From positions 1-20,470 of IMG/VR virus record IMGVR_UViG_3300024273_000847: DNA of 20,470 bases. The stretch is one strand, 5' to 3'. A program made the position numbers and the translations under genes. The stretch is from a virus. Of this stretch, positions 506-16,237 are shown piece after piece. Under the pieces are notes generated by a model. That model was not told where the DNA came from. It made no database searches and saw only the letters and a list, made by a program, of their open reading frames with translations. Position 1 is the first letter of the stretch; every line of letters begins with the position of its first letter.

Positions 506-1141
506 GTGCAAGTTATCAAAACTCTCAAAGCCGCCAAAGCCGTCGCCGGTTCATTAGGCAAGCCATCAAAGATGCCGGGCTTAAGTTATGGCATAAGCGC
601 CAAGCGCTGCATTGTAGGGGCTAAGCTCGCCACAATTGAAGGGAGCGTCTGTCACGGCTGTTATGCTTTAAAAGCCAACTATTCGTACCCTTCTGTGATG
701 CAAGCCCATGAAACCCGTCTCTCAAGCCTAGAACATCCACAATGGACCGAGGCTATGACGTTACAAATAGATAAGAGCAAAACACAATGGTTCCGGTGGC
801 ATGATGCAGGAGACTTGCAAAGCTTTCAACACCTGTTGAACATTGTAAAAATTGCAGAGGCTTTGCCTTTGGTGAAGTTTTGGATTCCTACCCGTGAGAA
901 AAAGATTGTTCATCAATTCGTTGACGCATTCGGCGCTTTCCCTGATAACCTAATTGTGCGCGTCTCTGCAACTATGATTGATGGCGAGGTTCCTGCGGGC
1001 TTTGCCCACACATCGACAGTGCATGAAAGCAGTGAAGCCAAGGGGACAACGTGTGAGGCTTATAAGCACAACAACAAATGTAATGATTGTCGCAAATGCT
1101 GGGATAAGGCAGTGGATAACGTGTCTTATAAGAAACACTGA
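506..1141 (+). CDS. GP88-like cysteine-rich phage protein
   Basis: A 211-residue protein starting at GTG with TAAGG seven bases upstream. It has two cysteine clusters: C35, C49 and C52 (the last within CHGCYA), and C183, C192, C195 and C198 (CxxCxxC near the C-terminus). Between them are RWHDAGD (97-103), WIPTRE (126-131) and VRVSATMID (151-159). This pattern matches, from memory, the phage 'gene product 88' family, which has no established function. The clusters suggest a bound metal or Fe-S centre, and the conserved RWHDAGD and WIPTRE blocks suggest an enzyme active site. It is not a canonical radical-SAM protein, because no CxxxCxxC is present. The stop is immediately followed by the second copy of the leader repeat and a hairpin, so this may end a small early unit. 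Confidence 0.75.
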   Translation: MQVIKTLKAAKAVAGSLGKPSKMPGLSYGISAKRCIVGAKLATIEGSVCHGCYALKANYSYPSVMQAHETRLSSLEHPQWTEAMTLQIDKSKTQWFRWHDAGDLQSFQHLLNIVKIAEALPLVKFWIPTREKKIVHQFVDAFGAFPDNLIVRVSATMIDGEVPAGFAHTSTVHESSEAKGTTCEAYKHNNKCNDCRKCWDKAVDNVSYKKH

Positions 1142-1538: not shown

Positions 1539-1991
1539 ATGTATATAAAATCAATAGCTACAGGGGCTACAAACCCTACCGAGTCCAAAGACTGCACCGT
1601 CAGAGCTTTGGCCAATGCCGCAGGCATTCCCTACGAAGCCGCGCACAAAGCCCTACAAAGCAAGGGACGTGAAGCGGGTAAGGGTTGCCATCCTCGCGTG
1701 TGGCATGAAGCCTACCAATCCGCAGGGTTGAGCTTTGTAGGCATATACGGCAAGACAACGACAACTAGGGGTTTTGCTTATCGTTACAAGGTGAAGGCCT
1801 TCAAGGGAATTAGCCTTGGCAGCTTGTTGCCTACTTTGGGACTTGGACGCTTTATTGTCGTTATCACTGGCCACGCCTTAGCCGTCATCGATGGGGCCAT
1901 TGTTGACAAGGGCGTCAATTCAAGCCGGAAGAGCGTTGTTGCTGTGTATAAATGCAAAGAGAATTTTCTCAAGCTAGGCTTTGTAGCCTAA
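1539..1991 (+). CDS. Possible papain-like thiol hydrolase, 150 aa
   Basis: A 150-residue soluble protein. Near the N-terminus is a conserved-looking Cys at the start of a helix (DCTVRALANAAG, C19). Near residue 112 is a hydrophobic strand followed by His (FIVVITGHALAVIDGAIVDKG; H112, with D118 and D123 close by). A Cys-helix followed about 90 residues later by Gly-His-Ala on a strand, then a second strand with an acidic residue, is the order of catalytic residues in papain-fold and C39-like peptidases. I therefore infer a thiol hydrolase fold. Substrate and role are unknown; an early phage protease or deconjugating enzyme is one possibility. It follows the acidic protein in the same early cluster. 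Confidence 0.6.
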   Translation: MYIKSIATGATNPTESKDCTVRALANAAGIPYEAAHKALQSKGREAGKGCHPRVWHEAYQSAGLSFVGIYGKTTTTRGFAYRYKVKAFKGISLGSLLPTLGLGRFIVVITGHALAVIDGAIVDKGVNSSRKSVVAVYKCKENFLKLGFVA

Positions 1992-13141: not shown

Positions 13142-13684
13142 ATGGCACAGAATTGTAACAACTGTTTCTACGAAGCACTTCCTTGGAACGAAGGCCCCTG
13201 CTTTCATTGTGATGCTGGAGGCTCTAAGTGGGTGGCGGTAGACTTCCTGAAGGATGTTCCAGATGACACCTCTAGCATGGAAGGAGAGAAGGTCATGGAA
13301 CAGATGCTTCAACAGCTTCATCGTATTCGCGCTTCTGACCAAGCCAAGAATGCTTCTGCCTCAGCCTCCGAAGCTGCTAAAAGCGCCTCCGCAGCCTTGG
13401 GAGTTAAATACGACAGCGATAAGCCTCGGTGGTCGTTGCTGCCCTTCAAAGCCTTGCAAGAGGTTGTGGAGGTACTCACCTTCGGAGCTAAGAAGTACGC
13501 ATCTGATAACTGGAAGATTGTGCCTAATGCTCAAGAGCGATATATTGACGCTGCTTATCGACACCTTGCTGATTGGAACTCAGGAGAGAAGAAAGACCCC
13601 GAGACAAACAAAAGCCATCTAGCACATGCTATTTGCTGCTTGCTGTTTCTCTTGTGGTTTGAACAAAAACACAGGCCTGAGTAA
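13142..13684 (+). CDS. Zinc ribbon plus DUF5664 nucleotide pyrophosphohydrolase
   Basis: A 180-residue, two-part protein. Residues 5-23 hold two CxxC knuckles (C5/C8 and C20/C23) of a zinc ribbon with a following SKWV. A low-complexity Ala/Ser stretch (about 66-86) links to a C-terminal MazG-like domain: YDSDKPRWSLLPFKAL, EVLTFGAKKYASDNW, RYIDAAYRHLADWNSGE and ETNKSHLAHAICCLLFL. This matches, from memory, DUF5664, annotated dATP/dGTP diphosphohydrolase. The domain would hydrolyse purine dNTPs to dNMP and so adjust the pool alongside ThyX and NrdJ. The metal-binding Glu/Asp/His residues expected in such helices are present (E110, D136, H141, E148, D152). A TAATG overlap leads to the next gene. 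Confidence 0.78.
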   Translation: MAQNCNNCFYEALPWNEGPCFHCDAGGSKWVAVDFLKDVPDDTSSMEGEKVMEQMLQQLHRIRASDQAKNASASASEAAKSASAALGVKYDSDKPRWSLLPFKALQEVVEVLTFGAKKYASDNWKIVPNAQERYIDAAYRHLADWNSGEKKDPETNKSHLAHAICCLLFLLWFEQKHRPE

Positions 13685-13845
13685 TGGGCTACTACACTCC
13701 CTATATCAAGAGCAGCTACATCACAGGAGGGCTTCGACGGCAAACCGTTGATGACTTCTTAGCAGCTGCTGCTTTTGTCGACAAGTTTAAGAAGTTTGAC
13801 CAATTATATGTTTATGAAAAAGAAGGAACGAATGACCAAGAATGA
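13684..13845 (+). CDS. Small hypothetical protein, 53 aa
   Basis: A 53-residue frame in a TAATG overlap with the DUF5664 gene. It begins MGYYTPYIKSSYITGGLRR and has a short Ala-rich helix (DDFLAAAAFVDKFKKF). The end overlaps the nrdJ start by 14 nt and contains that gene's ribosome-binding site (AGAAGGA). The Tyr-rich N-terminus is unusual. The family is not recognised. Confidence 0.55.
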   Translation: MGYYTPYIKSSYITGGLRRQTVDDFLAAAAFVDKFKKFDQLYVYEKEGTNDQE

Positions 13846-14902
13846 AATGTCCCCATACCAGACGTATATCAGCAAAAGTCGGTACAGCCGCTTCCTAGAC
13901 AAAGAAGGCCGACGAGAGCATTGGCCTGAGACAGTTAGCCGTTATTTTGACTTCATGGGGACCCACCTCCAAAAGAACCACGGCTATGTACTTACAGAGG
14001 CTCTCCGTGGTCGTCTACAAGAGGCTGTGACCAACTTGGAAGTTGTTCCTTCGATGCGCTCCATCATGACCGCTGGTGAGGCTCTTGACCGACAGAACGT
14101 TGCAGGCTACAATTGTGCCTACTTGACAATTGATGACCCTAAGAGCTTTGATGAGAGTATGTACATCCTGCTCTGCGGTACTGGTGTTGGTTATAGTGTG
14201 GAGCAGAAATATGTTAACAAGCTTCCAGAGGTTCCAGAAGTGTTGTACAATAGCAACACTGTTATTGGCGTTAAAGACTCCAAAGAAGGATGGGCTAAGG
14301 CGCTACGACAGGTGTTTGCCCTGCTTTATGCAGGCGAGATTCCTAAATGGGACGTATCATCTGTACGACCTGCCGGAGCACGACTTAAAACATTCGGTGG
14401 CCGTGCAAGTGGCCCCGAGCCTTTGGTGGACTTGTTTAAATACGTCATTGCTAAGTTCAAGGGTGCTGTTGGTCGAAAACTCACTTCTCTCGAAGCACAT
14501 GACATTCTATGTAAGATCGGGGAAGTTGTTGTTGTGGGCGGAGTTCGACGAAGCGCAATGATTAGTTTATCTGACCTCGGCGATGACAACATGGCTAAGG
14601 CTAAGGCAGGTAATTGGTGGGACGGTAACGGACAACGGGCACTAGCTAACAACAGTGCTGTGTATGACGTTAAGCCCTCCGTAGGCCAGTTTATGCGAGA
14701 ATGGAGCAGCATCTATGAGAGTCATTCTGGTGAGCGTGGTATTTTTAATCGTTATGCTAGTAAATTACAGGCTAATAAGAACGGAAGACGCGCTGTGCAG
14801 GTTGTAGTGACTTTAGAGGATGGGAGTAAGCAGACGTTTGAGTCAAATGAGCTTGTAAATAACAAAGCAGCTATTGATTTGAAAGTAGGAGATAGTGTTT
14901 AA
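13832..14902 (+). CDS. nrdJ: Class II ribonucleotide reductase, N-terminal half with extra tail
   Basis: The N-terminal part of the adenosylcobalamin-dependent RNR that makes dNTPs. The start at 13832 gives MTKNEMSPYQTYISKSRYSR; AGAAGGA lies four bases upstream. An earlier in-frame ATG at 13775 would add 19 residues absent from the family. Core signatures are YNCAYL (C95, the N-terminal partner of the redox pair), CGTGVGYSVE, VRRSAMISLSDL and SGERGIFNR. Normal homology ends at NGRR (residues 317-320). The last 36 residues (AVQVVVTLEDGSK...AIDLKVGDSV) are not RNR sequence and read like a HINT/intein beta segment. The gene then stops at TAA, overlapping the HNH start by 8 nt. The catalytic radical loop lies in the other half at 15257, so activity needs both chains. 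Confidence 0.93.
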   Translation: MTKNEMSPYQTYISKSRYSRFLDKEGRREHWPETVSRYFDFMGTHLQKNHGYVLTEALRGRLQEAVTNLEVVPSMRSIMTAGEALDRQNVAGYNCAYLTIDDPKSFDESMYILLCGTGVGYSVEQKYVNKLPEVPEVLYNSNTVIGVKDSKEGWAKALRQVFALLYAGEIPKWDVSSVRPAGARLKTFGGRASGPEPLVDLFKYVIAKFKGAVGRKLTSLEAHDILCKIGEVVVVGGVRRSAMISLSDLGDDNMAKAKAGNWWDGNGQRALANNSAVYDVKPSVGQFMREWSSIYESHSGERGIFNRYASKLQANKNGRRAVQVVVTLEDGSKQTFESNELVNNKAAIDLKVGDSV

Positions 14903-15260
14903 TAAGGTTTGTAATAAATGTAAAGAAACAAAACCTTTAGATTTATTTGTAAAACATAAGCAATGTATTGACGGAAGAGCCGGATATTGTAAAACATGTG
15001 ACGCAGCTACAGTGAGCAATCTACGGAGAGCAACAAAGCTGAAAGCTATCACTTACAAGGGAGGTGCTTGTTCTAGATGTAGTGGGGTATTTCATCCGGC
15101 TGTATATGATTTCCATCATGTAGACCCTTTAGAAAAAGAAGCCGATCCCGGTTCTTTGATGGGGAGAAAATGGAAAGTAGTAAAAGAAGAGCTTGATAAG
15201 TGTATCTTGCTCTGTTCAAATTGTCATCGGCTTACACATGCAGAAGAGGAATGGAAATGA
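14895..15260 (+). CDS. HNH homing endonuclease inside split nrdJ
   Basis: A 121-residue HNH nuclease between the two RNR halves. It starts at GTG 14895, with AGGAG three bases upstream, and overlaps the N-half stop by 8 nt. Zinc knuckles are CNKC (C6, C9) and CKTC (near C29/C32), a second pair is CSRC (about 59-62), and the catalytic region is YDFHHVDPLEKEADPGSL with CILLCSNCHRLTHAEE. So the module is a zinc finger followed by a Cys-rich HNH of the phage 'FHHxDP...CxNCHR' type. The stop overlaps the C-half start as ATGA. It probably mediates spread of the insertion by cutting uninterrupted nrdJ near the radical-cysteine codons. Frame 3 differs from that of the RNR halves. Confidence 0.9.
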   Translation: MFNKVCNKCKETKPLDLFVKHKQCIDGRAGYCKTCDAATVSNLRRATKLKAITYKGGACSRCSGVFHPAVYDFHHVDPLEKEADPGSLMGRKWKVVKEELDKCILLCSNCHRLTHAEEEWK

Positions 15261-16237
15261 AAATTACAAACATTGAAGTTATTACGGACACAGGTAACCA
15301 TGCTTATGGAACAAACCCCTGCTCAGAAATTATTCTACGGCCTTTTCAATTTTGCAATTTAAGCAGTGTTATTGTGCGACCAGAAGACACAGAAGAAACC
15401 CTGCTAGATAAGATTGAAATGGCTACCATCTTGGGAACCTTCCAGTCCACAATGACAAACTTCCCTTATCTCCGTAAGATTTGGCAGCAGAATACAGAAG
15501 AAGAGCGTTTGCTGGGTGTGTCGATGACAGGCCCTCTGGACAATCTTTTATTGAATAACCCGGATGATGAAAATCTTCCAAAGCTTCTAGAGAAACTTAA
15601 ACAACATGCTGTGGATACAAATAAGCAATTTGCTAATGATATTGGCATCAATCCTTCTGTGGCAATTACCGCTATCAAACCAGAAGGGACTGTCAGCCAG
15701 CTTAGTAATACTGCTAGTGGGCTCCATCCTCAACATAGTCGTTTCTTTATTCGTCGCGTAAGGAGCGATAATAAAGACCCTCTGACAGACTTCTTGAAGA
15801 TTCAGGGGTTTCCTTCAGAGGTTTGTGTAATGAAGCCTGATAGCACAACCATCTTCAGCTTCCCTATGCAAGTTAAAGAAGGTGCTTTGTTGCGTGAAGA
15901 CTTGAGTGCTGAGAAGCACTTACAGCTTTGGTTGTTGTACCAGCGTCATTATTGTGAGCATAAGCCCTCCGTTACCATTAGCGTGAAAGAGGACGAGTGG
16001 CCAATCATTGGTGCTAAAGTATGGGAGCATTTTGATGAAATCACGGGTGTTAGCTTTCTACCTATGGATGGAGGGACGTATCGACAGGCTCCTTATGAGG
16101 CTATTACGAAGGAAGAATATGTAGCCTTTGAAGCAGAAATGCCTAAAGGGATTAATTGGGATCATCTGTATGAGAATACGGACAACGTTGAAGGTGCTCA
16201 AACACTTGCTTGCACTGCTGGTCAGTGCGAAATCTAA
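15257..16237 (+). CDS. nrdJ: Class II ribonucleotide reductase, C-terminal half with extra N-tail
   Basis: It carries the catalytic centre. The start at 15257 (AGAGGA six bases upstream, ATGA overlap with the HNH stop) is chosen over 15200 and 15251. The first 16 residues (MKITNIEVITDTGNHA) are not RNR-like, and homology begins at YGTNPCSEIILRP. N20, C22 and E24 form the radical loop (C22 is the thiyl Cys), and C33, 11 residues on, is the second redox cysteine, matching the 408/419 spacing in Lactobacillus leichmannii. Further motifs are IKPEGTVSQLSNTASGLHP and a C-terminal CTAGQCEI (C319, C324), the swinging-arm pair with five-residue spacing. No catalytic residue is missing, so the two chains could assemble an active enzyme. 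Confidence 0.93.
   Translation: MKITNIEVITDTGNHAYGTNPCSEIILRPFQFCNLSSVIVRPEDTEETLLDKIEMATILGTFQSTMTNFPYLRKIWQQNTEEERLLGVSMTGPLDNLLLNNPDDENLPKLLEKLKQHAVDTNKQFANDIGINPSVAITAIKPEGTVSQLSNTASGLHPQHSRFFIRRVRSDNKDPLTDFLKIQGFPSEVCVMKPDSTTIFSFPMQVKEGALLREDLSAEKHLQLWLLYQRHYCEHKPSVTISVKEDEWPIIGAKVWEHFDEITGVSFLPMDGGTYRQAPYEAITKEEYVAFEAEMPKGINWDHLYENTDNVEGAQTLACTAGQCEI

What the first reader, a model, noticed from the sequence alone, without database searches (positions are those of the whole stretch)
506..1141. GP88-like protein with two cysteine clusters and RWHDAGD / WIPTRE blocks
Seven cysteines in two clusters plus invariant-looking charged motifs suggest a metal or Fe-S enzyme in the earliest region. 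The family has no assigned function as far as I know, so this is a tractable unknown enzyme.
Basis: partly seen in the sequence, partly recalled or inferred. Interest (0 to 1): 0.5.

Follow-up and report, generated by a model that had tools for sequence, protein, structure and literature searches.

The report
Phage GP88: likely two-cluster iron-sulfur enzyme
A small, widespread phage protein of unknown function looks like a stripped-down radical-SAM-type iron-sulfur enzyme and is a cousin of one half of a bacterial gene pair listed as a candidate anti-phage defence system, which gives a nameless family a testable chemistry.

Summary
In detail: window 506-1141 (+) encodes a 211-aa GP88 protein (PF17338, E 1.9e-25) with seven cysteines, C35-x13-C49-x2-C52 and C183-x8-C192-x2-C195-x2-C198. 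All seven are invariant in a 22-sequence alignment that includes it. Across 132 non-redundant sequences the first triad is present in 131 (one truncated) and the second set in 125, lost as a unit in 7. The AlphaFold model (pLDDT 96) has six strands in beta/alpha order. In the VIA-align second look its rows 1-14 are radical-SAM enzymes (Z 4.9-6.0); a mycobacteriophage member gives rows 1-13 (Z 6.3-7.4). These Z are modest, Foldseek alone did not show it, and canonical CX3CX2C and PF04055 matches are absent. GP88 is homologous by sequence to DUF5131 (CX6CX2C; hhalign E 8e-7), which lies within 1 kb of TcmP in 16 of 26 genomes and matches PADLOC candidate-defence proteins PDC-M30B/M41B (5 of 5 scanned). 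Best reading: a minimal, non-canonical radical-SAM-like enzyme with an auxiliary Fe-S cluster. Metal, SAM use and substrate are untested.

The parts
506..1141 (+). GP88 (PF17338) protein, 211 aa, proposed minimal radical-SAM-like enzyme
   Evidence: ORF; Pfam E 1.9e-25; dN 0.071-0.078 against dS 1.59-1.75
608..661 (+). first cysteine set C35-x13-C49-x2-C52, followed by Y53 A54; proposed SAM-binding [4Fe-4S] site in the loop after strand 1
   Evidence: invariant in the 22 sequences of A1; triad in 131 of 132 sequences; spacing x13-x2, x6-x3 or x5-x3 in 120 of 132; strand 26-28 precedes it in the model
794..814 (+). RWHDAGD (residues 97-103) at the end of strand 2; R97, G102, D103 84/84; proposed counterpart of the GGE motif
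   Evidence: motif roles as described for SkfB; correspondence inferred
881..898 (+). WIPTRE (residues 126-131) at the end of strand 3; T129 80/84; PTRE aligns to LTKR of DUF5131
947..967 (+). N148-x5-S154 at strand 4; both 84/84; proposed counterpart of the ribose motif
   Evidence: correspondence inferred
1052..1099 (+). second cysteine set C183-x8-C192-x2-C195-x2-C198 between strands 5 and 6; proposed auxiliary Fe-S cluster
   Evidence: four-Cys tail in 125 of 132 sequences, Cx2Cx2C absent altogether in the other 7; secondary structure

Best explanation
GP88 is a stand-alone, minimal (about 200-250 residue) radical-SAM-like enzyme. Shown here: the conserved sequence anatomy, a confidently predicted six-strand beta/alpha fold whose best-ranked structural matches are radical-SAM enzymes, and sequence homology to DUF5131. 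Inferred: C35, C49 and C52 hold a [4Fe-4S] cluster whose free iron binds S-adenosylmethionine; Y53, G102/D103 and S154 position SAM; reductive cleavage makes a 5'-deoxyadenosyl radical that acts on a substrate at the barrel mouth; C183/C192/C195/C198 hold an auxiliary cluster that shuttles an electron or anchors substrate. Because carriers infect unrelated hosts and no partner gene was found that most of them share, the substrate is most likely something universal, such as a nucleotide or nucleic acid (a guess, about 0.4 within this reading).
For: Cysteine triad in 131 of 132 sequences; Y53 is Y in 83 and F in 1 of 84, A54 84/84. AlphaFold model pLDDT 96.0, pTM 0.91, strands 26-28, 95-98, 124-129, 149-158, 169-173, 205-209 with helices between the first four. 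VIA-align rows 1-14 of 50 shown are radical-SAM structures (viperin-like 9dgw Z 6.0, rmsd 3.6, 151 aligned; TYW1, EpeE, SuiB, ChlB, BtrN, NifB). A mycobacteriophage GP88 with C-x6-C-x3-C (pLDDT 93.5) gives rows 1-13 of 50 (spore photoproduct lyase 4fhf Z 7.4, rmsd 3.5, 162 aligned; viperin; QueE). Residues that are 84/84 fall after strand 1, at strand 2 and at strand 4, the places of the CX3CXphiC, GGE and ribose motifs described for SkfB, where a Tyr next to the cysteine motif helps to orient the SAM adenine (PMC6231123, passages). Homology to DUF5131: hhalign probability 91.7, E 8e-7 (one comparison), CHGCYA on CTNCYA, AGD on MSD, PTRE on LTKR; 10 of 21 DUF5131 proteins hit the GP88 model at E <= 1, best 1.4e-7; the viral structure library lists a Gp37/Gp68-like protein at E 3.6e-4. 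A Cx2Cx2C run is more typical of Fe-S than zinc sites (general knowledge).
Against: Spacing is not CX3CX2C. The window protein has no PF04055 match at E <= 10. hhalign of GP88 (A3) against 30 canonical radical-SAM domains is not significant (probability 1.4, E 0.035; TMP-TENI control 0.3, E 0.2), and for the mycobacteriophage-led alignment it is no better than the control (0.3, E 0.23 against 0.2, E 0.35). All Z are below 8, which the tool says may mean only a common arrangement; rows within Z 1 count as tied, so the lower radical-SAM rows tie with other folds (Z 4.8, 6.2). Foldseek alone had no hit at E <= 0.001 and ranked others first (SibL methyltransferase; glycosidases). GGE is replaced by AGD/SGD.
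Confidence: 0.6

Rival explanations
1. A barrel-type Fe-S enzyme that does not use SAM, for example a reductase or hydro-lyase working through an open iron site in the manner of IspG.
For: Three-cysteine sites leave one iron free; the loop between the cysteines varies a lot (x13-x2, x6-x3, x5-x3, and C-x5-C-x22/23-C in cyanophage-type members); Foldseek listed IspG/GcpE (4g9p, 2y0f, 4s38) at E 0.046-0.082 for the mycobacteriophage model.
Against: Radical-SAM enzymes took the best-ranked rows of both second looks, and the fully conserved residues follow the radical-SAM motif order.
Confidence: 0.15
2. A zinc protein: two zinc sites stabilise a small barrel that is a binding protein or a hydrolase rather than a redox enzyme.
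For: Cysteine clusters alone do not tell zinc from iron; zinc-binding early phage proteins are common (general knowledge; no call).
Against: No fourth ligand conserved next to the triad among the 18 best-conserved columns, the Cx2Cx2C tail, and the structural ranking.
Confidence: 0.15
3. A relative of DUF5131 that acts mainly by binding and inhibiting a host TcmP/DUF5131 pair (counter-defence decoy).
For: Homology to DUF5131; DUF5131 and TcmP match PADLOC candidate-defence pairs M30/M41; viral carriers lack TcmP (0 of 36 records, which may be fragments).
Against: The putative catalytic residues and, in 125 of 132, the second cysteine set are kept, and the gene is under strong purifying selection, more than a decoy should need (inference). 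Whether the hosts carry the pair was not tested.
Confidence: 0.07

Closest known systems
Pfam GP88 (PF17338) / phrog_1392
   Same: Member by score; same cysteine sets and motifs as viral relatives
   Different: Belongs to the C-x13-C-x2-C branch; mycobacteriophage members have C-x6-C-x3-C and helices after strands 4 and 5
DUF5131 (PF07505, phage Gp37/Gp68) with partner TcmP (TIGR04474); PADLOC PDC-M30/M41
   Same: Sequence homology, hhalign E 8e-7; CxxCYA, GD/SD, TRE/TKR and N-x5-S blocks in the same order
   Different: DUF5131 has C-x6-C-x2-C and a C-terminal GGESG...KQWG part to which GP88 does not align, and sits within 1 kb of TcmP in 16 of 26 genomes; no TcmP in 36 GP88 virus records and no PADLOC match for the window protein
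DUF7227 (PF23872)
   Same: 36 of 84 GP88 sequences also match it at E <= 10, best 3.6e-11
   Different: Function also unknown; the window protein does not match it at E <= 10
Radical-SAM superfamily (viperin, spore photoproduct lyase, QueE)
   Same: Six-strand beta/alpha order and best rank in the structural second look
   Different: No CX3CX2C, no PF04055 match, no GGE

Membership tests
Pfam GP88 (PF17338) | score above curated cut-off 24.4 bits | tested here: met
   90.5 bits, residues 29-199
Radical-SAM superfamily | canonical CX3CX2C motif | tested here: not met
   C-x13-C-x2-C in the window protein; x13-x2 in 75 and x6-x3 in 40 of 132; the one x3-x2 count (L093) comes from an extra Cys, its x13 Cys is present too
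Radical-SAM superfamily | sequence match to PF04055 | tested here: not met
   not among matches of the window protein at E <= 10; hhalign to 30 members not significant
Radical-SAM superfamily | partial (beta/alpha)6 order | tested here: met
   six strands in order in both predicted models; helices after each of the first five strands in the mycobacteriophage one, not after strand 4 in the window protein; predicted, not solved
Radical-SAM superfamily | fold closer to radical SAM than to other barrels | tested here: inconclusive
   rows 1-14 and 1-13 are radical SAM, but Z 4.9-7.4, under 8, with ties below; Foldseek alone did not show it
Radical-SAM superfamily | GGE and ribose motifs | tested here: inconclusive
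   G102-D103 and S154 84/84 at strands 2 and 4 but GGE itself absent
Radical-SAM superfamily | [4Fe-4S] binding and reductive SAM cleavage | not testable with these tools
   needs anaerobic biochemistry
DUF5131 / PDC-M30B, M41B | model score and TcmP neighbour | tested here: not met
   window protein not matched by PF07505 at E <= 10 nor by PADLOC at E <= 0.1; no TcmP in G000 or 35 other GP88 virus records
SPASM/Twitch auxiliary-cluster domains | C-terminal domain with auxiliary-cluster cysteines | tested here: inconclusive
   the quartet lies between strands 5 and 6, not clearly a separate domain; only a functional analogy is offered

The most novel reading that the evidence does not exclude
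Phages of bacteria, and by library names archaeal viruses, carry a minimal radical-SAM enzyme that shares ancestry with the DUF5131 half of a candidate bacterial anti-phage system, and use it to make a modified nucleotide or nucleic acid (or to remove one made by the host), so that the same chemistry serves both sides of the conflict.
Probability: 0.12. Interest if true: 0.85.

Novelty: new variant of a known kind. Interest (0 to 1): 0.55.

Why it matters
GP88 relatives are in hundreds of sequenced phage records, 232 of them mycobacteriophages, and carry only a gene number for a name. Tying the family to a small Fe-S-type fold and to DUF5131/TcmP turns 'unknown function' into specific tests (cluster, SAM cleavage, nucleoside analysis) in the genetically easy M. 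smegmatis phages, and suggests what the biochemistry of the PADLOC M30/M41 candidates may be.

Tried and rejected
Sequence search of solved structures found no convincing relative (best E 0.88-1.1). NCBIfam gave nothing for the window protein. Clustering 1195 neighbouring ORFs of the 132 sequences (up to ten nearest each, locus ends limiting) found no cluster in more than 24 loci; the big ones follow single lineages, and one in 16 loci looks like a terminase. A QueC hint (3 of 84 at E <= 10, best 0.0062) and Fer4 hints (10 of 84, best 0.5) were judged too weak. Spore photoproduct lyase (PF20903) turned up in only 3 of 190 genomes, too few for a control profile, and was not taken further. IspG is not among the 50 rows; families not listed are not excluded. 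PADLOC gave a weak DpdF hint for one GP88 (L086, E 0.026), not followed.

Literature (10 searches, PMC open library only): PF17338 and DUF5131 in no paper; 'gene product 88' and GP88 domain/family variants gave 1 and 2 papers unrelated by title; radical SAM enzymes with bacteriophage, viral and noncanonical gave none. GP88 with mycobacteriophage gave 13 papers that I saw only as a listing, so I cannot say that none describes this family. GP88 with radical SAM and phage gave one, PMC8066314, where the passage shows another gp88. Passages only: PMC5463345, a table row calling a Gp37Gp68 protein 'ssDNA-annealing'; PMC12429752 and PMC12445080, table rows naming TcmP (a third TcmP paper was not opened); PMC6231123 (found by the search).

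Full report
What is there. Window 506-1141 (+) is a 211-residue ORF in a 20,470-base virus record. It is a GP88 protein by Pfam (E 1.9e-25) and phrog_1392 by PHROGs; neither gives a function. Genes downstream match primase/helicase, DNA polymerase and exonuclease families. Host is inferred, not shown.

Conservation. tblastn finds 18 phage records from the window protein. A divergent member, from Streptomyces phage Gilgamesh, finds 258, 232 of them mycobacteriophages, mostly over part of the query; the two lists share at least Gilgamesh. The viral structure library also names GP88 proteins in a Nitrosopumilus spindle-shaped virus and Halogranum tailed virus 1. Among 132 sequences clustered at 85% identity, the window included, two cysteines precede the CYA block in 131 (the exception, L105, is cut by a contig end) and the four-cysteine tail is in 125; the other seven (Gilgamesh-like and Synechococcus-phage-like) lack the Cx2Cx2C altogether. 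So the triad is the core and the quartet an accessory lost as a unit. The spacing of the triad is flexible: x13-x2 in 75, x6-x3 in 40, x5-x3 in 5, others in the rest; two cyanophage-type members have C-x5-C-x22/23-C. For this reason alignment column 35 shows C in only 42 of 84.

Fold. The AlphaFold model of the window protein (alignment A3) has mean pLDDT 96.0 and pTM 0.91. Foldseek against the PDB gives nothing at E <= 0.001; the first hit is an unrelated methyltransferase and a viperin is 13th. In the VIA-align second look at Foldseek's 1000 candidates, rows 1-14 are radical-SAM enzymes (several recognised from memory rather than from the title): viperin-type enzymes, TYW1, EpeE, SuiB, ChlB, BtrN and NifB, Z 4.9-6.0, rmsd 3.5-4.5, 135-152 residues aligned. 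By my count 20 of the 50 rows shown are radical SAM; the first other fold is at Z 4.8. A second model, of a mycobacteriophage GP88 with other cysteine spacing (A4, 54 sequences, pLDDT 93.5), has radical-SAM enzymes in rows 1-13 (spore photoproduct lyase Z 7.4, viperin-like 7.2, QueE 6.9) and in 21 of 50; the first other barrel is at Z 6.2. Rows within 1 of each other are ties and all Z are under 8, so this is ranking evidence, not proof. The two alignments share members, so the models are not independent. Foldseek alone put glycosidases first for the second model and listed spore photoproduct lyase 14th.

Register. From the ranges, C35 should fall close to the first cluster cysteine of viperin (5vsl), SuiB (5v1q) and BtrN (4m7s); the cysteine numbers of those enzymes are recalled and the ranges give end points only, so this is weak. 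The 18 columns conserved in at least 90% of 84 sequences are C49, C52, Y53 and A54 after strand 1; V64 and M84 in helices; R97, G102 and D103 at strand 2; P121, W126 and T129 at or before strand 3; N148 and S154 at strand 4; and C183, C192, C195 and C198. The SkfB paper describes the canonical parts: a partial (beta/alpha)6 barrel, CX3CXphiC with an adjacent Tyr near the SAM adenine, GGE, and a ribose-motif Ser (PMC6231123, passages).

Relatives by sequence. The GP88 model matches 10 of 385 genomes at E <= 0.001; 8 of the 10 places coincide with DUF5131 genes, one is the GP88 of L099, and one lies in a genome that I did not search for DUF5131. hhalign of GP88 against DUF5131 gives probability 91.7 and E 8e-7 over 111 columns; the mycobacteriophage-led alignment gives 88.5 and 2.8e-6. 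Conversely 14 of 84 GP88 sequences hit DUF5131 at E <= 10, best 0.0017, and the window protein does not. Against 30 canonical radical-SAM domains GP88 is not significant (1.4, E 0.035; control 0.3, E 0.2), nor is DUF5131 (2.2, E 0.021; control 0.5, E 0.11), and A4 is no better than control. DUF5131 has C-x6-C-x2-C-Y. TcmP lies within 1 kb of it in 16 of 26 genomes. Five of five DUF5131 proteins scanned match PDC-M30B and M41B, and the one TcmP scanned matches PDC-M30A (E 8.2e-20) and, weakly, M41A. PADLOC candidates are associations, as far as I recall, not tested systems. TcmP is absent from 36 GP88-bearing virus records, which may be fragments.

Interpretation. The simplest account is a stand-alone, minimal radical-SAM-like enzyme with one SAM cluster and a dispensable auxiliary cluster. 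Cluster type, SAM use and substrate are inferred. The lack of a widely shared neighbour and the range of hosts argue for a universal substrate; nucleotide or nucleic acid is my guess, prompted by the nearest structural matches (viperin acts on CTP, spore photoproduct lyase on DNA, QueE and TYW1 in base modification; recalled). It is not filed as a radical-SAM member, because the canonical motif and PF04055 tests were not met; 'works like' is the claim.

Noticed in passing
window 13775-16237 (+): A B12-dependent ribonucleotide reductase is split into two ORFs, 13775-14902 and 15200-16237, with a third ORF, 14895-15260, between them that looks HNH-like by eye (no Pfam match at E <= 0.01); the first piece ends in a tail that looks like an intein start (motif recalled).
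   Followed up: no
window 13142-13684 (+): A protein with a dATP/dGTP diphosphohydrolase N-terminal domain (PF18909, E 1.3e-34), a kind that I recall from base-modified phage genomes.
   Followed up: no
window 1539-1991 (+): phrog_3754 protein (E 2.9e-15) with Cys and His blocks that look papain-like by eye; similar genes lie near GP88 in 5 of 132 loci, the window included.
   Followed up: partly
L290 and L386 (same genome, G210:C1): DUF5131 and TcmP genes form tight pairs (gap 64-399 bases in 15 of 16 genomes, 953 in one); the DUF5131 side matches PADLOC M30B and M41B alike.
   Followed up: partly
L106:4953-5666: A GP88 gene lies in the complete chromosome of Paraconexibacter antarcticus; whether in a prophage was not determined.
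   Followed up: no
L193: The GP88 match is spread over two ORFs in different frames in this contig: a frameshift, real or from sequencing.
   Followed up: no
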